DNA of 64,000 bases, from NCBI GenBank assembly GCA_003971905.1, contig RSEE01000015.1, positions 310,001-374,000 of the forward strand. The letters are read 5' to 3'. The position numbers and the translations under genes are program-made. This stretch comes from Moniliella sp. 'wahieum'. Lineage: Eukaryota; Basidiomycota; Moniliellomycetes; Moniliellales; Moniliellaceae. The notes under the pieces are model-generated. The model ran no database searches and had not been told where the DNA came from. It saw only the letters and a list, made by a program, of their open reading frames with translations. Shown piece after piece: positions 14,289 to 63,500 of this stretch (positions are counted from its first letter, which is position 1; the number at the start of each line of letters is the position of its first letter).

Positions 14289-16291
<2,003 letters not shown>

Positions 16292-16801
16292 ACAAGTCGA
16301 CTTTGCCACTAGCTCGCCTTGTTTTGTTCTCTGTTTCTTCATCCCATGATGCCCCTTCGTTACGGCGCTCGCGACGCTCGAGGCCGTTGTACTACAAAAA
16401 TTCCCATGATTTGACTCCACATGCTGTTGAGATGTAGAATTCCCACTTGATATAGTTCCTTGAAGGGGAGGAATAGCCATCGTACATGCTAACTGCATTT
16501 GCAGCTCGTCAAACACGTTCAACATTCCTTGGACTGATAGACCCACGCGGGGTCCCGCCTCAAGCACAATTGGCTGCCCTATCCACCTACCTACATCTAC
16601 TTCCCCGGCGGTATGGGCGGGAGCTGGGGGTGCACCCTGCCCGGCTCGCCTGAGGCAGCACGACATGATGCCATGTGGCAGGTGCTTTGGCTCGGGGTTC
16701 AATGGAACGTTGACAGAATGAAGATGAATGAATGGTAGATGTACAAAACATGCGGGGCGAAGGCGAGGGGCGCGAGGCGCGAGGCGAACCTGGGCGGCAC
16801 T
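16292..16801. other. convergent 3' regions
   Basis: This lies between the Hsp70 stop (+) and the BTB gene stop (-). The first 150 bases are T-rich (TTGTTTTGTTCTCTGTTTCTTC) and probably Hsp70 3' UTR. No gene is visible. Confidence 0.5.
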
Positions 16802-30662: not shown

Positions 30663-32790
30663 ATGCTCCCGGCGTGCAAGAGCGCCGACGTCAATCTGCT
30701 TGTGTACCACTACCTCAAGGAGAGCGGCTTCACCCACACCTGCTTTGCCCTCCGCCACGAGGCCCGCCTCGACGACGACCCAACAGCCAGCACGCCGTCG
30801 TCGAGCCCGGCGCCCTTATCCGCACCCTCCAGAAGGGCCTGCTCTACCTTGCCGTTGAGGCCCACATCAACCCTGTGCGTGTGCTTACCCTCCCCCCCCC
30901 CATCCGTCTTGCTGCGTCCCCATGCTTACTTCGCCTGCCATGACACGCGCACAGGATGGATCCGAGGTGGCCTGCAGCGCGCCCTTCCGCCTCATCGGCC
31001 CTCCCCACGTCTGTGACGGCCGCACCTCCCCTCCGCCCGAACCGCGCAAGGAACGCCTCCTATCCTCAGCGGCTCACTCCTGATCCGGACCCGAAAGAGC
31101 GCCGAGAATTTGCTGACGCCGCAACACAGACCTTCCCGCCGCCGCCGCCGCCGCCGTCACAGCCCCAACCCAACGGCGGCGGCCCGAAGCGGAAGCCAAG
31201 TGAGGAGCAAGGCTCACTTCCCCGAAGCGATAAGAGGCCACGTAGGGAGCTCTCAGAGCCTCCCACAAGGAACGAGGGCAGGAGAGGCTCCGATGAGGAT
31301 GAACCCCCCGATTCGGACTCGGCAATGAGCAAGAAGAGAAGCGCAAGGGCTATAAGGAATCTAAGAAGGCCCGCTCGGTTCCCGACCCAGGCTTTCATCC
31401 TTACCCACGCCAGGTGGAGGATGGGACCCAGTTCACGTCGGACGAGGTACAGGTCCTGACGGGGCATGTGGGCGAAGTCTTGTGTCGGCGTGGAACCCTA
31501 CGGTGCCCGACTTGGTTGCCTCGGGCGCTGGGGACGCGACGGTTCGAATCTGGGACTTGAGTCTTCCGGGAAAAGAAGGGGTGGAACCCATTGACCCTAC
31601 GACTGGGCCCACAGCCCGCTCCCAGACGACCAAGATGATTTGCAAACACCTTCCTGCAACTCACGCAAAAGACGTGTCCGCATTGGAGTGGAACCCAGAT
31701 GGAACGCTTTTGGCTTCCGGTTCATACGATGGGATCTTGCGCCTCTGGACACCCCAGGGGGACCTCCATCTGGTTATGTCTATGCACCAAGGGCCCATCT
31801 TTAGCGTGCACTGGAACCGGCAGGGCACACGTCTTTTGACGGGTTCAGCCGACAGCACGGCTATTGTCTGGGATCTTGGGACTGGGGGGTGTTGCAGCAG
31901 TTTGCTGTGCACTCGGACAGCGTCCTGGATGTGGATTGGCTTTCCTCTCCCGGGGATCTGGCTGGCAGCGGGTGGCAAGACGATATCTTTGCCACCTGCA
32001 GTGCTGACAACACCATTGATCTCCTCAAGCTCGGGGAGGGGAAACCACTTCGCGTCCTCAAGAGCCACGAGGACGAACGAAGTCAACGCCATCTCTTTTG
32101 ACCCGTCCAACACACTGTTAGCCTCTGCGTCTGACGACATGACGGCTAAGATCTGGATGGTGGATGCTGCACTTGAAGGACTAGGGGGGGGAGGGGACTC
32201 TCTCCGGCTTCGCGCAGGCGCACGCGACCGACCGACGAGGCGCGACCGCTCCTCCCTCGGACTCGACAGAGCAGGAGAAGGAAACTCCCCTGCCCGATCC
32301 TCCCACGTCGAGCAAATCCTCCCGGAGCGCCAAGTGCCTCAAGTTCACTCTTGCTGGCCATACAAAAGAACTGTACGCGCTCTCTTGGGCGCCACAGGGC
32401 CTAAGACTGCCAACGAAGCCCAACCTCGCATGTTGGCCACGGCATCGTTTGACCACACGGCGCGGATCTGGAACGCCGATACAGGCACGTGTCTTCGGGT
32501 GGTGCGGGAACATACCGACTCGGTTGTCGCACTAGCGTGGTCCCCGTGCGCACGCCTCTTGGTGACCGGGGGGATGGACGGATGGTGCTGGTAACGCGCG
32601 TACGCGATGGAGTGATTGTCAAGCGCTTCAAGGCAGCTGGGGGGGTGATGGACATTCAATGGCACTCGGACACGGATCCGCAGAGCCACCATCTCGGGCC
32701 CGACTGAGCATTGCCCAGCAGAACCGCATCTTGACTGTGTTGTGGATTCGGGAGCTGGCGGTGTGTGAGAAGGGAAAATCCGGTGATTTA
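30663..32790 (+). CDS. LisH-WD40 protein of the TBL1/Sif2 family
   Basis: TBL1 (animals) and Sif2 (yeast Set3 complex) are WD40 scaffolds of histone-deacetylase co-repressors in the nucleus. Start ATG at 30663: MLPACKSADVNLLVYHYLKE, then SGFTHTCFALRHEA, a textbook LisH motif. ALIRTLQKGLLYLAVEAHIN follows, then an intron at 30875-30954 and DGSEVACSAPFRLIGPPHVC. A charged nuclear-looking linker has GGGPKRKPSEEQGSLPRSDK. WD repeats: VRIWDLSLPG, LEWNPDGTLLASGSYDGILR, SVHWNRQGTRLLTGSADSTA, VDWLSSPGDLAG with FATCSADNTI, ISFDPSNTLLASASDDMTAK, KFTLAGHTKELYALSW, RMLATASFDHTARIWNADTG and ALAWSPCARLLVTGGMDG. The last blade is VLVTRVRDGVIVKRFKAAGG to QNRILTVLWIREL. Six or more frame shifts; the exact stop (about 32750-32790) is uncertain. 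The linker plus repeat spacing favours TBL1/Sif2 over other WD40 families. Confidence 0.88.
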
Positions 32791-45308: not shown

Positions 45309-48300
45309 CTACGCCATCGCCTTGGCCAGCAGACCTTTGTACTTGTCCCCCAGCTCGTCCCACAAGCCTGGACGGGCGCCCTGCATGGCCTCCAGCGTCG
45401 GCCCCAGCTCTTTCAGCCGCCGCGGCACTTCCCCCCTCAGGTCCAGGGTGGCGACCGGTCGTGGGCCCACTCTTCTTTGCCCATCGCGGCCGCTGGATCG
45501 ACCGCGCCGGCCTCGTCCATCACTCCGAGATCCAGCAGGTCCGACACGTGCATCCCCCCAACGACTAGTCGTCCCACCCGTCCTCGTCGACCTCCTCCGC
45601 CTCGGGCTCCTGGCCTGCCGACTTCACCGTCCAGCACTCCATCAACGCACCCAGCAAGCAAGCGCGACGGTGGAGCGGTAGAGTGTGTTGGCCGGCCATG
45701 GAACGCGTTACAATTTGCCTCCGGTCGGTAGCACTTCCCCCCGTACAGGTAGCGTCAGTAGCAGATCCCCTCCCTCCCGCAGCAGACGCAGCAGACGCCA
45801 GGGCGTTCACCTTGCGTGCCCAGACGCCATGCAGCGATCCGTCTCTTGCATCCAGCGTTCCGCCACGAGCGCAGCCCTGTCCGTCACCCAAGTCCAGCGC
45901 AGCGAGCACAGCCAGCGCATCGGTCCGCGGGCACACCAGCGTCGGGCCGGAATCAGGTAGAGAAGGGGCACGAGGATGCCGTGGGTTAAGGATGCTGTCT
46001 TGGCTGCCTTGAGGCGAGAGACGAGGGCACGGAGCAGCTCGCTGCTCTGTTGGAGCATGCCCTTCTCTCCGGATCAGGGCACAAAGGAACGGTCCAAGCG
46101 CCAACCGGCCGTCGTTTCGAGCGTGTCCTCGGGTCGAGCAAGGCAGTGAGCACGGGGCAAGGAAGGCGCGTGTCGAGGTGGGTGGCAGCGTGGGAGCAAG
46201 GGTGATGGGAAGCCCGTTCCAGGCCAGTGTGGGTTCGGGCGCCTTGCCAATGAGGTAGGTGAGGCTCTGGACGAGCGCCTGTTGCACGTCCGGTCTTGTC
46301 CCAACTCGGCCCAGGCACCCACCAGGGCGGGGAGAAGGGTGGGGCAGCTTGGACTGTAGTAGCGCATCGGGCTGAGCCGCACGAAGCAATGCATCAACAC
46401 ATGCCAGAGTAGCTGCCGCCGCCCGCGTAGCCCAGCGTCCATATCCTCCTTAGTCGCCCCCTCGATACTGCCTTCCAGCTGCACCTCGGCCTCGGTGGGG
46501 CGCACCACGTACCCAGCCACAAGGGGAATGCAGCACTGAGGATGGCCACATCCGCTGGCGCTTGCACCTGGGACACAAACGCCTCCAACACATCCTCCGC
46601 CACCGAGCTCACTACCGGATCGTCTCGCTGGGCCAGGAAGGTGTGCACCACGCCCTCGGCCAGCGCGGACGCTTCGCGGCGCTGACGCTACCCGAGGAGA
46701 GCGCAGCGACGCCAAACAGCCTGCACGGCCTCCAGAACCAGACGCTCGTGTCACTTTGTTCAGCAGTCTGGGTGCTTTGCAACAGACGGCCCAGGTGGCC
46801 CAGGAGAGTCGGCGCACACTCGCTGGCTTCAGGTGGCGTGGTAGAGGAGGCGAAGTGACGATAAAAGTTGCGCACGGTCCGCGTCGCGGCGGCCGTCGCA
46901 ATCGCATCGCTGCCGCCCAGGGTGAGGGTGGCCGCGTTAAGGAACTGAAGAGAGATGCTGAGGGGCAAGGCGGCGGCAAACTGGGAGGCAAAGAGGAACG
47001 TTTGGGCGGTCAAGAGAGGCGGGGCATTTTGCACATACGGCGCCACGGCCAGATCAAACGTTTTTTCCAGTTCAAACGCTGGCGTTTCAGCGAGCAGGTC
47101 TCCGTTGCCTCCCAAGAGGAGCAGGATAGCCTCAATCGGTTTCCACCAATCTGATCGTCCTTGAGCGCGGTACGCCTCTCCGACGGCCACGCGCGCCGGC
47201 ACAGCGCGTACCAATGCTTTGACACTTGCGTCTGGAATCACCTCCAATAGGTCCGACACCGGTCTCGAGCCCAGTGGCGCGCAAGGATTCCGTGCCAGCA
47301 AAGATGGCACCTCCACCATCGGCCTCATCAAGCTCGGCGACAAAGGCGTTGATGAACGGACCATTCCTCCTCTTGCTCGTTGGTCACCATGCAAGTTGGG
47401 TCAAACTTTCGACCCAGGAGCCGAGGAGAGAGATCCCACCTTCCTGACCTGGGCGGAGAAGATTGGAGCAGGTTGGAGACCGTCTTGTGGTACGCGCGAA
47501 GAAGCGCGCTGGCCGTCTCCACCGCTGCGCTCGCCACACCCGGGAGGGAGGAAGCAATGTCCCCATCGCCTTCGGGGGGAAGCCAGCTGGCTCCCCTCTG
47601 CCGAGGGGCTGGTTTCGTAGGTTTCCAAGGCCTGTGCGGCAGCGCGGGTAACAGCGAGGGAGGCAACGACCACGTCCGACACGTGCGATTTGAACACAGG
47701 CTTGACATGCGACGCCAGCTGGAGCGTGCGCAGCGCCTCGGCAGTGAGTGCAAGCTGTTCCCATGTTTCCACTCCCTGGGCACTCGTGGCGAGCGCATGC
47801 AAGCCCTGCTCGCCTTGCCGCACGAGCTGAAGAAGGGCAGGGATCCAACGAGGGAGCACAGTCTCAAGCGCCGTCTGGGCCGCTTGTGGAAACTGTTCCC
47901 GGATCAAGTAGGTAGCCTCGAGCATCTGACGCACCAGACCAACAGCGCGGGCCTGAAGGTGCGCATCGATGCCTTGGGGCGATGAGACGATGGCCTCGAG
48001 ACTAGGGAGAAGCTGATCGGTAAGGTGGAGGAGCTGGTGCTCGTCCAACTCGGAACGGGCAAACTCGGACAGGAAGACGAGGGCGCCATGAGCCTTGTGC
48101 GGGGTAACATTGGCTGGATCAAGTGCGGAAATGAGGACAGGCAGGAGCTCGGGCATCTGGTCGGGGAAGTCGGTGCTGGCCACGTGGCTGAGCGTGAGGG
48201 CCGAGGCGAGCCGGAGTTTGCGCTCGTCAGAGAGCAGGAGCTCAAGGAGGGTGGCGCGAACTTGGGCCTTGGCCGCGGCGGGCATGGCCTCGCCGTTTAC

Positions 48301-48543
48301 GCCTGTGTAGTTGGCGCCGAGAGGAGACCAGGTGGCATCGACAACCTGGCGCAGAAGTAAGGAAGCGGCCTGGCGGATGGGCAGCGGGACAGCCGGGGTG
48401 GCAGCGACCTGGACGAGAGCAGGGCCAAAGAGGCCGTCGCTGGTCTTGCGGTGCTGCAGCTGGGCCTCGGCATGGGAGCGGAGGCCCGTGTCGGCGTCGA
48501 GGGTCTGGGCGAGGAGCTGGGCAACCGCGTCAGGATCAGCCAT
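45309..48543 (-). CDS. KAP114: karyopherin-beta, importin-9/Kap114 type
   Basis: Kap114/importin-9 carries histones, TBP and other cargo into the nucleus with RanGTP-dependent release. Start ATG at 48543: MADPDAVAQLLAQTLDADTG. The importin N-terminal domain follows: LRSHAEAQLQHRKTSDGLFG, AVPLPIRQAASLLLRQVVDA, LRLASALTLSHVASTDFPDQ, MPELLPVLISALDPANVTPH and KAHGALVFLSEFARSELDEH, characteristic of this branch. HEAT helices continue (RALVQSLTYLIGKAPEPTLA near 46240; PWQLLWHVLMHCFVRLSP-like near 46400). The acidic loop near the end (PEAEEVDEDGWDD) precedes SDLLDLGVMDEAGAVDPAAA, LKELGPTLEAMQGARPGLWD and the end ELGDKYKGLLAKAMA at 45309. About 1,075 residues, normal for the family. No intron is needed, but at least eight frame shifts are. 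The start-proximal 300 residues are uninterrupted. Confidence 0.85.
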
Positions 48544-50331
48544 GGCGGTGGGGGGGAGGAGCAGCAGAAAAGTGGTGGAGAGGAGGCGTGCTAGGCTTGC
48601 TGGCTGGTTTTTTTTGTTGGTTTTTTTTCTGGCAGCCAAAGCGAAGAGGTGGTGCGCGCCGCGCTTTTACATCAGCAGCCCCACACTTGTCTTGCCCAGG
48701 AGAGCAGGGAAGGGGATGTTGCCTTGACGCGTCGCGCCGCCCCCACGCCGGGGCAGGCATCGCACGCACCAGGATTGGTCTTGCGTCCGGCGCTCCCGCC
48801 CCGCCCGCGTCCCACCCATGCGGGCGTGCCAGCCCCATATCCATCTCTTCGCGCCCCTCACACCTATTACGTCTGCGTCTCATGTCGGAATCCGACCCCC
48901 GGGTCTTACACGTTTCCCCCAACCTACTAGTAGTACTACACTGGACGTTAGTACGTACTAGAGTTACCGCTCTTTTTACCATCGATGGCTCGGGACCCTC
49001 TTGGCGTTTGTTTGCATGGGGTGCAGCCCAGTCACGCCTTCTTCCGAGGGAGGCACAGCAGCGCGTCCTGGCCGCCGCCTGGTTCCGCGGCTTCCCCTTC
49101 GCACGCGTTCCCTCCACCTGGGCGAGTCCTCGACGCTACGTTAAGTACCACATTACTTGCTGCCCACGGTCGATTGACACTGTGCGTATCGAACACGAGG
49201 CCTACCCCACCCAGTGTTGCTCTCACAAGACCGGGTCAACCAGGATACTACTAAGGACTTGCAGGGCAGCATATCTCCACGCTCTTTCTCCTTGCAATGG
49301 TTGTGGCATCGGAATCGTAGTCGGCCCAGGCCCATGCGGACAATGAGTTCACGCCGTGTCTGTGCGCTTCTCGCCCTGTGTTGGCCACCGCGGCGACCAT
49401 TTTTTCATGCTGGGGATGGTGGCTCTCAGCAACTTTTTTGTAGCTTCTGCCGGGTTCGGCCGCTTGAACTACACGGAGACCTGCCTTGAACGAACGATCG
49501 GAGGAAGTTGCAGGGTTTGAGGGGGTGGTGTGGGGCATCATGTGTGCTTGCATTGTATGCTGATTTTGGCGCTTGGACACAAGCGTAGTTTGCTGGTGCC
49601 GTGTGGAACGGCCATGCATATTCTTTGTGACGGGGGATAGGGGTGTTCTGTTTTGGCACATTGGGCCCTGCAATGGGCGAGGCACTAGTATTGCTGTGAT
49701 GCATACTATGATGTGGGGGCCAAAAGAAGCGCGAGCAAAAGTGCATACTGGTGACGGCAACTGGTGTTGGAGCTGTTGGGCTGCTGCCCCATGGATGATT
49801 TGGCGGGGCATGTTTGCCCTGAGGATGAATATTGAAGGGTGAAGCTTGAGCCTCAATCGGGAAGCGATTGGCGTAGGACGATGGAGCGGGGAGGAGGAGG
49901 GGACTAGGCACAGATGGGGTGCGAGGGCATCGGATGGACTGTGCGGCTGCATGCGGGCGAGGTGTGATGTGACATGTGATACAGTGTGCTGTGATACGGG
50001 CGATGGCGATGGAGAGTGCGCTGCTGCCTGCGCTGGAAAGCCAGACCCCCTCGGGGTGCCAGGCGGCTGTCGGGCTGTCGGAGCTGGGATGCGACGATGC
50101 GGAGGGCAGGCGGTGGATCGCATGCGCCGTGCTCAGCCATCCGATGGCTGAGCATTGATAGAGCATTGCCTCCTGCTGCTCCGCCCTCGCCATCGCCCTT
50201 GCCCCCGCCCTCGCCCTCGCCGTTGCCCCCCCCCTCGCCATCGCATCCCCCCCCCCCCCCCAACCACCGCCCTCGCTACCCCCCCCCTCCCTTCCGTGGG
50301 CCGATGAGCCGCGATCACGCGCGCCGTGGCC
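48544..50331. other. intergenic region between divergent genes
   Basis: This separates the karyopherin (-) and the Fab1-type kinase (+). It contains a GTGTGATGTGACATGTGATA motif at 49962-49981, an 11-bp perfect inverted repeat at 50130-50154 (TGCTCAGCCAT, loop CCG) and C-rich tracts (50225-50290). T runs at 48610-48630 lie next to the karyopherin start. I see no gene; the long minus-strand frames are compositional. Confidence 0.45.
49962..49981. promoter_or_regulatory. GTGACATGTGA motif copy
   Basis: GATGTGACATGTGATA carries the CATGTG core with GTGA flanks, as at 4741, 9515 and 13555. It is about 350 bp upstream of the Fab1-type gene. Function is inferred only. Confidence 0.3.
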
Positions 50332-53300: not shown

Positions 53301-55603
53301 GCCAGTCGGAGAAAGCCGATCCCGAGAGTGAGGCGCGGGCTGTGGCCGAGTTACTCCAAGTTGGGATTGAGCCTGCACGCCAGGCGCTTCGCTTGGCCGA
53401 TGGCCTGGTGCGCCGTGCTAAGCAGCAAGCCGAGGCTGACTTGGGCGTCGATTCCGACCCACTCGTTCACGGTCCCATTGGGCCCGTCTCGCTCTGGACG
53501 GTTGTCGACGGGGTCCCGTCCAAGACCCAATGGCTCTCACCGGGTGCCTACCTGTGGTCTTTGGGCAAGTTTGTCGAAATGCTGATCTACCACACCTTTA
53601 CCGCCGACGGCCTTCCCTCCCAGCCCCGGCCCACCCCCACTTTCTTCTTCCGTACGACCCACGCCGTGGTAAAGGCCACAGCTTCTCCCTTTCGTCTATA
53701 TCACCTTCAGCTCCAAGATCCCTTCCTTCCGTCCCCACCCCAGGAGAAGGAGCAGCGTTTGGAAGCGGTACGTTGGAATTCCTTTGTGAAGAGCCGAGCT
53801 GACGATCTCCAGGCACGCGAGACGCTTGTGGACTGGACCCAGTCCTTCTATACGTCGGTGCAGCGTCACCTAGACAACGCCGCGCTCATCCTGGCGCAGC
53901 AGGCGGAAGCGCCTGGTGCCGCGGCGAGCGAGGCGCAGGATGACCCCAGCTCTCCTCGAGCCAGACTGTATGCGCTGCGCCAGGTTCTCGCCGAGGAGCA
54001 CACCCACCTCGAAACCACCATCCGCTCCACCCCCATCACAGAGCTGAACGATGCACGGATAGCGTTGCATGATCGCGCTGCGGCGGCGGCGGCGGGCCGA
54101 GGCTTGGTGGGGGAAGTACCTTGCTGATCCCATGCCAGAGACGCACTACGCCTGGCCCCCCTGGGAAGAGGAGTGATGCTGCCCTCGTCTTCTGTCGTGG
54201 TGCGCATGAACGATCCCTTGTCCGTCGTGGCGTACACCCTCAGCCTCCCTAGTTTCCAACGGGCCGTTCATTCCCATGCAGTCAGCCGGGATTCGGCGGT
54301 AGGCTCCCCACTCGAGCCCAAGGATTCGATGGAAGAGTTGACTGCGCAACCTTCCCGCTCCACTGTTTCCACTTCCCAACAGTCCACCGCTGAGCCTCCG
54401 CCTCCCGACCCCGACGATCCCGACGCGCAGTTCTACCGCCCTGAGCGCACAATGGGCGTGACCAAGGCCAAGAAACGGGCCAAGGATGCGTCGTTGCTTA
54501 CGTTCAACAAGCTCCGTCGCCTCTCCTCGCGGCAGAATGAAGAAGGGGACCATACGTGGCCGCGCAAGGCGCCGTATACCCCGTTGCGTCCCGTGTCGAC
54601 GCCCAGCCTGTACAGCATGCCTGAAAAGGATGAGTATGACTCGGATGGCGGCCATGGCACGCCCACCTACCCCCACTACCCCCACTCAGTGCATGTCAAG
54701 CACACGGTCACCCGGGGCGCGCAAGGTATCTTGTACAGCGTGGCACGCCGCTTCGTTTGCCCGCTTGCGTTCCCTGTGGGGTATGGGGGAGACGGATTTG
54801 GTAGAGTCGTTGAGCCATTGTACCAACTGGGCCGCTGGCGGCGGCAAGTCCTCCTCGGCGTTTTTCCGTTCGTCAGATGGCAAGCTGGTGGCCAAGCAAC
54901 TGCAGGCCGTCTGGACCATGGATGAGACGGAAGCGTTCCTGGACTTTGCGCCATCGTACTTGGCGTACGCGACCCACTGCGCCACCAGCCACCAGCCTAG
55001 TCTGCTGGTCCGCATCCTCGGCGTCTACAGCATCAAGATCAAGGACACCACTGGCCGGATACCTCGGAAGCAAATGAATCTGATGGTGCTGGACAATGTA
55101 TTTGCCCATCCTGCCGGGGCTGGGCCACTGCTGCGCTTTGATCTCAAGGGCATCCGCGACCGACGGGTGAAGCATGCCAATTTCGCCTTGGACCCCGGCG
55201 GCCATGTGTGGCACGATGCCGAGTGGGCGGAGCAAATGCGGCGCAGCGCGTTTGTCCCTGCGCCCGAGAAGAGCGGCTACTGCGTGCGCTCGAGCGCGAC
55301 GTGGCGTTCCTAGTGCAGCGGGACCGGATGGACTATTCGTTGCTGGTGGCGGTAGCGGGCACGCGGGTGCGGGTGCAGTGGTGGACTACCGGGGCGTTTA
55401 CATGGGGCAAGCAACTGGAGAGCACGTCCAAGCGCGTGCTCAAGTCGCCCGATGGTAAACACAACGTCACCATCCTCCCGCCGGGCGAGTACGCCGAGCG
55501 CCTGCAGACGGCAGTACGCGAGTACTTTGTCGCGTGCCCCACGGGCGGGGAGCGAAGAGCGAGGGCTGCCGAGCGTGTTGTAGGGTCGGTGGAAACAAGG
55601 TAA
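50332..55603 (+). CDS. FAB1: phosphatidylinositol-3-phosphate 5-kinase, Fab1/PIKfyve type
   Basis: Fab1 makes PtdIns(3,5)P2 on the vacuole membrane. The C-terminal lipid-kinase domain is clear: GGGKSSSAFFRSSDGKLVAK (nucleotide-binding loop and Lys), SYLAYATHCATSHQPSLLVR, ILGVYSIKIKDTTGRIPRKQ, MNLMVLDNVFAHPAG, RFDLKGIRDRR (catalytic DLKG), FLVQRDRMDYSLLVAVAG (MDYSLL) and LESTSKRVLKSPDGKHNVTI before the end at 55603. Upstream, GPVSLWTVVDGVPSKTQWLS with AYLWSLGKFVEMLIYHTFTA matches the Fab1 middle region. Other coding pieces are LTASEAERLTVERAERAFAA, an intron near 51929-51985, MYAGQAMLLEAQFLANMGME, and EEVTLALAAAAAAGAG-type low complexity at 53050. The N-terminal start at ATG 50332 and the segment HLHALARAHWAAQPPHAALD are tentative and could be a separate gene. 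I see neither a FYVE zinc finger nor a convincing chaperonin-like domain. Many shifts and introns. Confidence 0.82.
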
Positions 55604-57797: not shown

Positions 57798-60588
57798 CTA
57801 TGCCGTCGGTGTTTGGACATCATGTGGCACGGGAAGTGTGCAGTCCATGAGGGATGACGGAGAAGGGGAGGGGGATGGAGTAAGATCCTCCGACAAGGCA
57901 GTGGGCGAGAACATATCTTGAGCGGACGGAGGGGGGGTCACTAATTTGGAACCCCTCGTTGACAACTGCTTCTGAGGAAGCGGTAGAGCATCAGTGGCCT
58001 GATCACGGAGGATATCGGCGCGCATTTTTTGACGGCGCCGAGCAATATACCGTGAGCGTTTGGCCCTTCGCCTCTGTTTCCGTTCCTCCTCGGGGAGTTC
58101 CGGAACACCGCCGTTGCGCTTTCGGAGGGCCTCGGGACGATGACGTGTACAATAAAAGTCGTCCGTACGCCAGTCGATCGGAGAAATATTTTGACGAATT
58201 AGAAAGTTGTTCCAGCAGCGGGTATGCTGCCTGATTCCACACACGGCGCACTCTAACATCGGCCACTTTCGAACACCGAGGGAAAACTGTCCCTTGCGGC
58301 CACAGACCTCACAGTCATAGGTCACCATTCCTGGTGCTGTTGTCGCCGCTGACTTGGGTTTAGGAGCGAGCGATGCAGTGGGATCCCTCGGTGTGGGCTG
58401 CTCTAGCTTCTGGCTTATTGGGTCCAGGAAATGAGCGGGATCTCCCTGGCAATATTGCCATGGCCTTACAGCACCACCTTCCTTTTGTTCGCCTCTAGTC
58501 GCCCGCCACGCCTTCAACCACTTGCGCTGGGCTGCCGCTCGCTCCTTTTTGGCCCAAGTCTGCTGTAGGGCCCTCTCCTTCTTAGCCTGGGTCACTTGCA
58601 GCACCCCCCTTTTCTCCGTCCGGGCCTTCTTCCTCCCGGATTCAAGCGTAGTATCCACCTCCGCTTTGACTTGGTCTTCAACCCGTACTTGCTCTTGAGC
58701 CACCGTGCGGCAAGAACGCTTCCGCGTGTCCTGGAAAAGCTCCATGAGTTGAGCTCGGGCTTGAGTTGCCTCCATTTTCTCGGCCTTGGCTTGGGCATCC
58801 ACATCCGCTAATATTTTGTCCAAGCGCGAGGACAAACATGTGAACATGGCCACCTCGTCCGCGTGTTGCTTCCTCCTCCTCTTGACTTTTTTCTTCCTTG
58901 GTGGGCAAAGGGCGGAAAAGAAGGCTTCCCACTCGGACCGTGCGCAGCAGACCACCTCCATTTCCACACTCCCCTCGAGTGGAGCTTCAAGTGCTGCGGC
59001 ATCCAATGCGTACTGTTTGTCCCATTGCTGGAACTGTGCGAGCTTTTCCGCGTCGGCTGAGAGTGCAGCACGCCGTATTCCACTTCCGACTGTGCTCCTG
59101 GCATCATATCGTTGGCGTCCGGACCAACATGGTGCTCAGGACTCAACATTGACTCCGGGCACGGCATTTGTGAACGAGAGGGTATCGCCGTCCCGTGCTC
59201 TGCAGGGGGAGCATCAACGACGATACCGTCATCACACTTGGACGAGTAGGCGTCCGTCGACGGGCGGCCCTGCTGAGTCAGTAGGGCATCAGAGTATGTG
59301 TCTTCCCCACCATCCTCAGCTGCATTCGAATCTTGGTAGGGCCAGGGGTTAGGTGCCTGTTGTGAGGACACCATTTCCATCTTGGTTGGTGAATGAGCCC
59401 GTGTTTCTGAAGACGGCCCGACTCGAGTAGCCGCAATTCAGGAAGATGCACCCCCTTCACAGGATCCTCCAAGTCCTCTGAGTCCTCTGAGTCCTCAGAT
59501 TCTCCTGGTGCCTCCGGTTCCGTTGGCTGTTGTGGCTTCCCCGAATGGGCATAGAGTACCCATAAGCGCGTGCCAATTAGGTAGTACGTGTTCCCGTTCC
59601 GATCAGACCCTATAGGGTCGTTTTGCTCGTGTTGAACAAGACTTTCCTCAGTCACCATATGGAGGCAGTCGGGCGTTTCGGAGATCCAAGAAGTGACATC
59701 ATGAAGGACTCCTAATTGAATGGGACGGGACAGGGAGGCAAACGTGCGTGGGTGCTCGTCCGACCCGAGCCAAGCAGAATGCGAAGGCATACGACGCTCG
59801 TATTCAGCCCGCAGGGTGCTGAGCCATGTCTCAGACGAGACGGTTCCGGGAGTGAGGAAGCGCATCAGCAGGCGAATTATCTCGGCTGTGCGCACAGCCG
59901 ATCCATTCACCAAATCCTGCTCCAGTTGCCACGGTGACATGGTGGCAGACCCGAGGAGTGGCCGGAAAGCCGAGAGGAATTGGCAGACGGCAGCAAAGCG
60001 TGCATCGCGGCGGAGACGGGCGATTCCCGGCTCGGTGCCCTGTGACGCAGCGAGAGCGGTGGTGAGGGGGTGTGAGCCAGGTTCGACAGAGGCGATAGGG
60101 AAACCCCGAGGAACTGAGAGCGTAGGCGTGGGTGTGGGTGTGACGACAGGTGGTGGTGGTGGCGGCGGGGCAACCTCCACAACAACGTTGCGCGTTGTTT
60201 CTGGTGGAGGCCAATCAAACCCTAGAAGCATTTGGAGTTGATGGGCAACATTGTGCTGGAGGGCCAGCTGAACTGCAGGGCCAAGCGGGATCCATGTGCC
60301 CTGACACTGGATGGGCGTGCCCTTCACTCTGTCATACTTGCAAGTGAGGATGAGCTTATCCAGTATACTCCTCCACTCGGCAGGCCCCAGTCCAGCAGCT
60401 TTCAGGATCTGGGTCGCGTTCAAGTATCCATCGGTCTTCCGGCGCATGCACGCAATGTTGCCCACCTTTGCCTCGTATACGGGCACACGTCCGTAGTTCA
60501 CCTCAGTAACCTGGCTTGGAGTTGGCGTGACGGTGGATACACCGGCGAGAGCGCTCGCCGCAGCGCCAGGAGCACCAGATGGAGGCAT
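57798..60588 (-). CDS. KilA-N/APSES DNA-binding protein with DDT/WHIM-like region and PHD-type finger
   Basis: Start ATG at 60588 (MPPSGAPGAAASALAGVSTV). An APSES/KilA-N domain follows: TEVNYGRVPVYEAKVGNIAC, MRRKTDGYLNATQILKAAGL and VKGTPIQCQGTWIPLGPAVQ, i.e. the helix-turn-helix of Mbp1/Swi4/StuA-type factors. After a Pro-rich linker, VCQFLSAFRPLLGSATMSPW, AEIIRLLMRFLTPGTVSSET and LGVLHDVTSWISETPDCLHM, with DPIGSDRNGNTYYLIGTRLW, match a DDT/WHIM module (D-P-[IL]-G-x-D-R-x-G-N-x-Y). Two frame shifts then lead through an acidic part (DALLTQQGRPSTDAYSSKCD) into REKLAQFQQWDKQYALDAAA, a basic coiled coil (AKKERALQQTWAKKERAAAQ) and a PHD-like finger: YDCEVCGRKGQF, PMLECAVCGIRQHTRCWNN, FYCTRH (C-x2-C, C-x2-C, H-x2-C, C-x2-H). 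Stop at 57798. About 920 residues. I infer a chromatin-linked transcription factor; no ankyrin repeats are seen. Confidence 0.8.
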
Positions 60589-63500
60589 GGCTGTGGTAGA
60601 AGAGGATAGAGCAGGCGGCAATTTGAGTGCTGTTCCCGCAGATGGCAAAGCGGATTAGACCACAGCGGGCGGAGGCGGAGCTGGTTGGGTAGAGCTCAGA
60701 GCGAAAACGGTGCTGGCCGATGTCGATTGTAATGAACGCCGGCGGTGTGTGTGTGGTTCACGCCAACACCCACGCTCAGACGCTCACGACGCCAGTGCCC
60801 GTGAGTCCGTGTAACCCTAACATACACCGCTATTTACCCATTCATTACGTACCAGACTGGCCTAGTGCAGCACAAACTGTGTTACGTAACAGTGTCTCTG
60901 CCGCAGCATTAACCAGGCTCGTCCTGACGGACACATTTCTGCTCTCTGGATCTGATACGTAATGACATTTCTTTCGGAATGTCCAGATCGTTTGGAGTTC
61001 ACCGACAATATACATGAGGATGCCGGCATAACTGCTCATAATTTCTTGCCAGGGAAACTTTATGTGTAGTCACAAAATTCTATCACGAAGCCTCGATTTG
61101 AGTGCGAGCCATGCACGGTCGAGAGGAAAAAGTTAGAAGACCAAAGGTTGATCCCACCAGAAACTGGGGACTGTTTGACTGCATGAGATACTAGAAAAAG
61201 GCAGGATTTGCTTGGATTTGAGAATGAATTGTCGGAAGGATGGCGATGGAAGAGGATCGATGACCCCGCAAGAGGTGACGAACAAGTTGCAAAGACCAAT
61301 CCAATGAAGCCTGTAGAGGAATAGGCAACAAAATAAATTATGAGCGTTACAGGATAGCTCTTGGGTTTTGGCCAGGATCCCGTCAGTCCCCTTCCGTCCG
61401 GCGTTGGTGCACCGCTGTTTTCGCACTTCTGCTGTACATGCAGCACGGTCAGGCCTGATGAAGACTGGCCGCATGATGACCCTGTTGGGGTGATAGGCTG
61501 GCTTAAATGGTCAACACCACCACTAGTGCGATTGCACCACTGTCGACCGCAATCAAGACGCCAGGGCCCATCACAAAGGAGAAAGTGTGAGTGTAAACAA
61601 TAAGGTCCGCAGCCCGCAACAAAAGGAACAGGGACCAAAAGCGGAATGCACCCCAGCCTCAACCAGAAAACGCAGTAGGGAAAAGCCTCCAGACAAAAGA
61701 AACGCACCAATGAGAGAGTTCGACATTGGCGATGGAATAGGTCAACATAAAGAAAGGATTTGAAGCGGGCCCAAGCGCACAAATAACCACCGCCGTACGG
61801 CTGGTAAAGACTGGGGCCAGATAACCCAGGTCGAAGGGAAACTGCACCATTTCGACAGAACCAAGTTCATCGTTTCGGTCGATGAGACAATCCGTTCGTC
61901 AGGCAGACATAACCCAAGCAAGAGAGACGGAGGAACCTTGTGAGTACGGCGTCGGGATCGTCCTCCCGTCTTCGCCAGGGATATAATAATGCTCGTTGTG
62001 TGTATTTCGCACGGGCGACCGATTGAGGTACCGTTGGGGGTGGTAACGCAAGAAATGGCTTGATGGTAGGAGACAAATTCCCTCTTCGTGGGCAGCGCAC
62101 CCCATGTCAAGTCAGGGCGTCAGAGCGTAGCTCAATTTTGGCGGTCCAGCACGACTAGACAGAAAAGTCCGTGAAGTCTGTGAAGTCCGTGAAGATATTC
62201 CATGTGTAACGCGTCTCGCGCGCCATAGCCCGTCGCGGGCATATTCCGCTTCGAGGCCGGATGTGGCCATAATTGAGTGACCTGCCCATCGCCCCAGGGA
62301 CGGGATACAACCACGGCGTCACCTCTGGGGTGGACTTACTGTTTAGTCTGAGGAGCGGGGCAGAACGGCCGACGCGTAACCGCAAACTCCATTCAACGGT
62401 GGGGTAATCGGGTCGACGATCATGGTGTATTCTGTGCACTTGGGGCAAGAGGTAAGGGGCTGTCGTCAACCGCCCCACCACGATGGAGCCAACTGCAGCC
62501 CTCACCACGTTCCGAACCTCAACGGGTCCAGAACAACGACCAGACTGGGGCATGTGCCCGACTCTGTCTCATCTCTGCGATCGAGGCCACAGCGATGCGC
62601 CCACCCAAGTGTACTATCTCAAAGCATCGACGAAAAAGCACTGCGAGGTAAGGGTTATTCTTGGAAACACACAACCCGGCACCAGCAGCGTTAGGCTGAG
62701 GGCACCAGCAGCATTAAACAGTGCGCATGCTCAGCGAACGTTGAGCTCCGGCACGTCTCGCGCAGGACTTTCAGCACAGGAAGCTCGTGGTGATGATGAG
62801 GATGGTGGTCTGCTGAAATATGGAGTCTGAGGCTCCGACCCTCAGGCCAGAGCTCAGGGACGGAGTCGCTGCAAACAAGCACAGCACCAACCCTAGCCAT
62901 CTGAGCGGAAGACGAAAACACTGACCCTGTGCCCCAAGGCGCAAGTGGCTTACGCAGTTGGACCACCATGTGTCATGCATTATGATGGGTGATGGATGGA
63001 ACGGTCAGTTGGCCACTGCATAGCGATCGGTGATTGGTACGTAAGCGCCCTCGAAATTCTGCATGCCGGGACCGCCACTAGCGCAACAGCAGGAAAGCGA
63101 CACAAACTACTAGGACGACAGGCCAAGAAGGAACGCGGCGTTGTGGCGACCACCAGGATGGTCCGTACGCGCGTTTGCTGACAGCTGTCCTGGAGCTCAC
63201 ATCCAGCCATCATCCCGCCAGACAATGCGCGCATACGCCAACCGGATTCGTTTGTCCTGGGCCATTCCTAGAAATGATTTATCGCGGGAGGGCGCGATGA
63301 AGCAACCATGCCATGAAAACGCCCCAAAAGAAAAGAACTTCATCCGCAGTACTGAGAAAAGCTATCAAGAGAGACAGAAGGTGATATGGCGGATAGGATC
63401 GATATGTGGAGAGGTAAGAAAGAAGTGGCCTGGCATGGACGGGCCAAGTAGAGGCAAACGATCGTGCTTCGCACACTTAGGTCACGTTTGGCATACCACA

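What the first reader, a model, noticed from the sequence alone, without database searches (positions are those of the whole stretch)
57798..60588. KilA-N/APSES domain combined with DDT/WHIM-like module and a PHD-type finger in one protein
Seen: an N-terminal KilA-N/APSES domain, a central region ending in DPIGSDRNGNTYYLI, and a C-terminal Cys/His finger, all on the same strand and in order. Known: fungal APSES factors (Mbp1, Swi4, StuA, Xbp1, Bqt4) pair the domain with ankyrin repeats, coiled coils or a membrane anchor. DDT-WHIM-PHD combinations belong to ISWI-associated remodelling subunits (BAZ/ACF1, RSF1). Inference: this gene joins sequence-specific DNA binding to a chromatin-reader layout, which would be an uncommon architecture. 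The finger ends in C-x2-H rather than the usual C-x2-C. The two halves are linked only through two frame shifts.
Basis: partly seen in the sequence, partly recalled or inferred. Interest (0 to 1): 0.75.

Follow-up and report, generated by a model that had tools for sequence, protein, structure and literature searches.

The report
Fungal DNA-binding domain on remodeller-like protein
A fungal gene appears to join a domain taken from a cell-cycle DNA-binding protein to a protein that resembles a helper of chromatin-remodelling machines, an uncommon combination; the two frame breaks inside it look like background errors of this genome assembly.

Summary
The minus-strand gene at 60588-57798 is real. 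Its N-terminus is an APSES/KilA-N domain (four PDB Mbp1-type sequences, E 1.2e-15 to 1.6e-14), in one open frame with a central module. A second frame carries a conserved block and a PHD-like finger ending C-x2-H. The two frame breaks are one-base length differences against a sister copy; their density matches that of Cpn60/TCP1 genes in the same assembly (0.75 per kb). Eight loci form two paralogues: four with APSES (two of these with two APSES-like domains) and four without. The APSES-less copies lie around the Pfam WSD (WHIM2) cut-off; DDT and WHIM1 do not match. Diverged copies are under purifying selection. The APSES domain nests in the organism's own Swi6/Mbp1-type clade on a long branch and lacks the QxGxGxxQ wing motif that 8 of 8 ordinary copies checked keep. 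The tryptophan beside the finger's histidine is replaced too. Best reading: a duplicated RSF1/ISWI-accessory-like gene that captured an APSES domain as a targeting or docking module. New variant of known kinds; mechanism inferred.

The parts
57798..60588 (-). whole coding region (first in-frame ATG at 60588, stop at 57798), read in three frames
   Evidence: homologous module order at eight loci
60202..60588 (-). APSES/KilA-N winged-helix domain with short N-terminal extension
   Evidence: 4ux5, 1mb1, 1l3g, 1bm8; tree
60080..60201 (-). proline-rich linker between APSES and central module
   Evidence: translation, by eye
59527..60079 (-). central RSF1/WHIM2-like module ending DPIGSDRNGNTYYLIGTRLWVLY
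   Evidence: 43 and 47% identical to two APSES-less paralogues that lie around the Pfam WSD cut-off
59399..59526 (-). acidic linker with first frame break (near 59.41 kb)
59060..59398 (-). linker in the middle frame; second frame break near 59.06 kb
58880..59056 (-). conserved post-WHIM block (EMEVVCCARSEWEAFFSAL)
   Evidence: 69% identical to C64, 64% to C91
58314..58879 (-). charged, probably coiled region and spacer
   Evidence: translation, by eye
58140..58313 (-). PHD-like finger, Cys4-His-Cys2-His
57801..58139 (-). basic and Ser/Pro-rich C-terminal tail
   Evidence: translation, by eye

Best explanation
One gene. A duplicate of an RSF1-like ISWI-accessory gene (central WHIM2-like module, post-WHIM block, PHD-like finger) captured an APSES winged-helix domain from the organism's own Swi6/Mbp1-type gene at its N-terminus, then diverged. 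Shown: the modules, their order on one strand, the APSES-less paralogue, purifying selection, the kinship of the APSES domain, loss of the CGCG-reading wing motif and of the finger's tryptophan. Inferred: the protein still docks on a remodelling ATPase through its central module, and the APSES domain acts as its targeting arm, by a changed DNA specificity or by protein contacts as Swi6 does. [quoted passage not shown] The frame breaks are most likely assembly errors.
For: APSES. APSES to central module in one 458-aa open frame; part of the same joint lies in one frame in C39 and in C64, while C186 is broken there. Eight loci, two paralogues. WSD at 4 of 4 APSES-less copies, 25.2-25.9 bits, but 23.4 and 23.8 for the two frames scanned alone (cut-off 25.4). 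Central module 43 and 47% identical between paralogues. Selection: window v. C186 central dN 0.166, dS 1.28; post-WHIM v. C64 0.206, 2.53; finger v. C186 0.310, 1.91; APSES v. two ordinary own copies 0.426, 1.28 and 0.400, 1.25, about the same ratio as between those two ordinary copies (0.175, 0.51). Tree: fused APSES inside the own Swi6-type clade, 96/86. Background: 41 frame changes in 54.7 kb of Cpn60/TCP1 matches, 30 of 40 loci with a break or inner stop. The first ATG of the third frame lies inside the conserved post-WHIM block, so a separate gene starting there would cut it.
Against: No Pfam match for the central module in the window copy itself. No DDT or WHIM1 match. The AlphaFold2 model of the central module is too poor to use (mean pLDDT 44.2); its profile matches no PDB sequence at E up to 10. 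No relative of the central module among 2179 candidates. Between the sisters C15 and C39 dN/dS is 0.90 in the finger and 2.07 in the tail. Short pieces of the second APSES-like domain of C64 and C186 against the window show weak constraint (dN 0.246, dS 0.34 on 28 codons; 0.373, 0.71 on 29). The background break density could also reflect real decay of duplicate copies. The remodeller link rests on a short motif and on recalled resemblance to RSF1. No transcript evidence.
Confidence: 0.55

Rival explanations
1. The fused protein is a true sequence-specific factor: its APSES domain binds MCB-like sites and carries a remodeller accessory module there.
For: Domain clearly homologous to Mbp1/PCG2 DNA-binding domains; the residues equal to PCG2 Q89, T91 and K56 are kept (my reading of the alignment with PMC4333399 numbering).
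Against: Residues equal to PCG2 Q82, G84, G86 and K62 are replaced (by K, T, I, P). In PMC4333399 Q82L/N lowered binding at least 30-fold and Q82E abolished it; Q82K is not mentioned in the passages seen. Ordinary own copies keep the motif in 8 of 8 checked.
Confidence: 0.15
2. The APSES domain no longer binds DNA and is a protein-docking module, plugging the accessory protein into MBF/SBF-type complexes, as Swi6 acts without DNA binding of its own.
For: Wing motif lost in the window, C39 and C186 second domain and C64 first domain; long branch 1.24; Swi6 has no DNA-binding domain of its own and recruits Isw2 (PMC7968928 passages).
Against: Constraint on the APSES domain about equals that between ordinary copies (about 0.33), which does not say what is kept; a new DNA specificity fits equally well.
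Confidence: 0.3
3. Two adjacent genes: an APSES-central protein and a separate PHD-finger protein.
For: The first frame closes at 59278 and the third is separate.
Against: The same order at eight loci, including APSES-less copies; the third frame has no ATG before its conserved block; break density is background.
Confidence: 0.1
4. Decaying pseudogene.
For: Frame breaks in the window copy and more in C39; finger and tail of the sisters show dN/dS 0.90 and 2.07.
Against: Cpn60/TCP1 genes show the same break density; comparisons with diverged copies show purifying selection.
Confidence: 0.1

Closest known systems
Mbp1/PCG2/Swi6 (APSES, KilA-N) cell-cycle regulators
   Same: N-terminal APSES winged-helix domain, nested in the own Swi6/Mbp1-type clade
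   Different: no ankyrin repeat match; QxGxGxxQ wing motif lost; fused to a central WHIM2-like module and a finger
RSF1-like ISWI accessory proteins (WHIM2 + PHD)
   Same: central module ending in a WHIM2-type D-R-x-x-N-x-Y motif, then an E-M-E-x-V-C...E-W block, then a PHD-like finger (RSF1 comparison recalled, from no call)
   Different: APSES domain at the N-terminus; finger ends C-x2-H; Pfam WSD approached only by the APSES-less paralogues; no DDT or WHIM1 match
Itc1/ACF1/BAZ (WAC-DDT-WHIM)
   Same: presumed remodeller-accessory role
   Different: no DDT match; the genome's DDT genes and its strongest WSD matches lie elsewhere (C37, C99, C6)

Membership tests
APSES/KilA-N (SBF/MBF) | homologous APSES domain | tested here: met
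   E 1.2e-15 to 1.6e-14; Pfam 19.8 and 20.4 bits, under its cut-off of 23.8
APSES/KilA-N (SBF/MBF) | wing motif QxGxGxxQ that reads CGCG (PMC4333399) | tested here: not met
   for C64
APSES/KilA-N (SBF/MBF) | ankyrin repeats of Mbp1/Swi6 | tested here: not met
   no Ank match at E<=5 in any of the three frames
DDT-domain ISWI accessory (Itc1/ACF1/BAZ) | DDT domain PF02791 | tested here: not met
   none of the eight family loci; for the window
DDT-domain ISWI accessory (Itc1/ACF1/BAZ) | WHIM1 PF15612 | tested here: not met
   for the window
RSF1-like (WHIM2 + PHD) | WHIM2/WSD PF15613 | tested here: inconclusive
   window no match; 4 of 4 APSES-less paralogues around the cut-off
RSF1-like (WHIM2 + PHD) | PHD finger | tested here: inconclusive
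   20.2 bits v. cut-off 24; model pLDDT 67.7, the first 19 PDB matches are entries with PHD fingers but the best E is 0.024
RSF1-like (WHIM2 + PHD) | binding to an ISWI ATPase | not testable with these tools
   needs protein interaction data

The most novel reading that the evidence does not exclude
A lineage-specific class of chromatin regulators in which a captured cell-cycle APSES domain, in one or two copies, is covalently part of an ISWI-accessory protein, replacing the adaptor step by which yeast Swi6 recruits Isw2; both its DNA-reading and its histone-reading surfaces have been re-tuned.
Probability: 0.35. Interest if true: 0.7.

Novelty: new variant of a known kind. Interest (0 to 1): 0.5.

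Why it matters
Yeast Isw2 is steered to promoters by separate DNA-bound factors such as Swi6 complexes (PMC7968928 passages). A natural fusion of the two would show how such steering can be hard-wired, and how an APSES domain behaves after losing its known DNA-reading residues. Two subfamilies (one or two APSES-like domains) and an APSES-less paralogue in one genome give a built-in comparison.

Tried and rejected
Introns as the cause of the frame changes: many GT-AG pairs are possible, but the sister alignment shows one-base length differences at the two places, so introns are not needed; they are not strictly excluded.

Homologue searches. (central region; proteins of about 511-1626 aa): none of 2179 candidates at E<=10. 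Fusions elsewhere may have been missed, because the word-based search is insensitive to distant relatives.

The structure model of the central module was too poor, so no fold search was run on it. A strict DNA pattern for the wing motif found one place, C5:1047k, an ordinary APSES copy. Paper searches: APSES, PHD finger, WHIM, at least two terms (13 papers, none on this by title and abstract start); HARE-HTH, WHIM, DDT domain, ISWI, at least two (38 papers, 15 listed); APSES, KilA-N, domain architecture, Basidiomycota, at least three; RSF1 and fungi, at least four of five terms; KilA-N + ISWI; APSES + ISWI (unrelated by title and abstract start); MLL5 W141. That this architecture is not in print is only as good as these searches.

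Full report
What is there. The window is C15:310001-374000 of a 69.5 Mb, 223-contig genome. On the minus strand a 458-aa open frame (59278-60654) has its first ATG at 60588. It holds an APSES/KilA-N domain that matches four PDB sequences of Mbp1-type domains at E 1.2e-15 to 1.6e-14; Pfam KilA-N scores 19.8 and 20.4 bits, under its 23.8 cut-off. The same frame runs on, without a break, into a central module ending DPIGSDRNGNTYYLIGTRLWVLY. A second, 445-aa frame (57798-59135) carries a conserved block (EMEVVCCARSEWEAFFSAL), a charged stretch and a finger of pattern Cys4-His-Cys2-His.

One family, two paralogues. Six-frame searches of the own genome and fetched regions show eight loci with the central module. 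In the best aligned block C15 (window) and C39 are 90% identical in DNA, C64 and C186 95%, C110 and C91 89%, C11 and C5 91%. C15 and C39 have one APSES domain. C64 and C186 have two APSES-like domains before the central module; the pieces scanned with Pfam give no match, so this rests on similarity to the window domain. At C91, C110, C11 and C5 (E<=0.001) shows no match to the APSES part. Thus an APSES-less gene and an APSES-bearing gene coexist.

What the central module is. The window copy alone matches no Pfam family. It is 43 and 47% identical to the C91 and C110 copies. All four APSES-less copies match Pfam WSD (WHIM2, D-TOX E) over its first half: 25.2-25.9 bits in the genome search, but 23.4 and 23.8 bits for the two frames scanned alone, around the cut-off of 25.4. 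DDT and WHIM1 match none of the eight loci; the genome's DDT genes are elsewhere. The order WHIM2-like motif, E-M-E-x-V-C...E-W block, finger recalls RSF1; that comparison is from memory and is a lead only. The AlphaFold2 model (mean pLDDT 44.2) and the PDB profile search (no match) do not help.

The finger. Pfam PHD gives 20.2 bits (cut-off 24) for the window finger. The family profile best matches a PHD entry, 1wee, E 0.0011. The model (pLDDT 67.7) has entries with PHD fingers as its first 19 PDB matches, best E 0.024. The end of the finger could be read in 7 of 8 copies and is C-x2-H in all 7; in C110 it was not found. The tryptophan next to the QH pair is present in the four APSES-less copies (C11, C5, C91; C110) and replaced in the four APSES-bearing ones (CGIRQH in C15 and GIRQH in C39, CGVLHH in C64 and C186). 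That this tryptophan usually forms part of a methyl-lysine cage is recalled, from no call.

The frame breaks. The changes of frame near 59.41 and 59.06 kb are one-base length differences against the C39 copy, which has several other breaks of its own. As a control, 104 of the 105 Cpn60/TCP1 (PF00118) matches were grouped into 40 loci: 41 frame changes without room for an intron in 54.7 kb of matches (0.75 per kb), and 30 of 40 loci with a break or an inner stop. The window gene has 2 in 2.79 kb. Since chaperonins are essential, assembly errors are the simplest cause; real decay of duplicates could add to the count. Forty such loci and, for the importin-like neighbour gene, close copies on C15 and C39 only suggest paired haplotypes plus partial duplication; ploidy was not established.

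Selection. Between the sisters C15 and C39 dN/dS is 0.48 overall, 0.33 in APSES and 0.30 in the central module, but 0.90 in the finger and 2.07 in the tail, on few changes. Against diverged copies: central module v. C186 dN 0.166, dS 1.28; post-WHIM block v. C64 0.206, 2.53 (near saturation); finger v. C186 0.310, 1.91; against APSES-less copies, central v. C91 0.457, 1.85 and finger v. C11 0.489, 1.32. APSES v. two ordinary own copies: 0.426, 1.28 and 0.400, 1.25, a ratio of about 0.33, much as between those two ordinary copies (0.175, 0.51). Short pieces of the second domain of C64 and C186 give higher ratios (0.246/0.34 on 28 codons, 0.373/0.71 on 29).

Where the APSES domain came from and what it can do. 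In a tree of 40 APSES rows the two fused domains sit with the organism's own Swi6-type copies (C53, C50, C15:882k, C26) and P0001, support 96/86, on a long branch (1.24); the inner forks are weaker (89/71, 94/74). The PCG2-DNA structure paper (PMC4333399; passages seen, including part of the abstract) says that the QxGxGxxQ wing motif reads CGCG and that changes at Q82 or Q89 cut or abolish binding. Eight ordinary APSES copies checked keep the motif, 8 of 8; two more show it in other outputs (C47; C5:1047k); three further APSES-like places (C2, C3, C29) were not examined. The window and C39 lack it, as do the C64 first domain and the C186 second domain. In the window the residues equal to Q82, G84, G86 and K62 are changed, those equal to Q89, T91 and K56 kept (read from the alignment). 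MCB binding is therefore unlikely; another DNA target or a docking role is open.

How it probably works. In yeast, Swi6 recruits the Isw2 remodeller to MBF and SBF sites through the accessory protein Itc1 (PMC7968928; passages seen). Here a Swi6-type APSES domain is part of what looks like an accessory protein. The inferred reading is an accessory subunit with a built-in targeting or docking arm and a changed finger. The link to an ISWI ATPase is not shown.

Novelty. APSES domains and WHIM/PHD accessory proteins are each known; their union was not found in the searches made, whose limits are given under Tried and rejected. I call it a new variant of a known kind.

Noticed in passing
whole genome: Cpn60/TCP1 matches fall into 40 loci with 0.75 frame breaks per kb: the assembly seems rich in one-base errors and in duplicate copies, which affects any reading of broken genes from it.
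   Followed up: partly
L048 3518-4250 and its counterpart in L049 (C64, C186): Sister gene with two APSES-like domains in tandem before the same central module; the wing motif is absent where it could be read (C64 first domain, C186 second domain).
   Followed up: partly
window 14987-16288 +: C-terminal part of an Hsp70 gene (PF00012, E 2.4e-119), with a 562-aa open frame on the opposite strand at 15113-16801.
   Followed up: no
window 54462-55310 +: Phosphatidylinositol phosphate kinase domain (PF01504, E 3.6e-14), by eye Fab1/PIKfyve-like.
   Followed up: no
window 47404-48666 -: Importin-beta N-terminal domain protein (PF03810, E 1.3e-10); close copies only on C15 and C39, two weak matches elsewhere.
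   Followed up: no
window 31365-32591 +: WD40 repeat protein (PF00400, E 8.3e-41).
   Followed up: no
L052 6759-6966 (C11): Tandem array of a 15-base unit, 13.9 copies, just after the finger of an APSES-less copy; its partner C5 (L053 3788-3831) has 2.9 copies of what looks like the same unit.
   Followed up: partly
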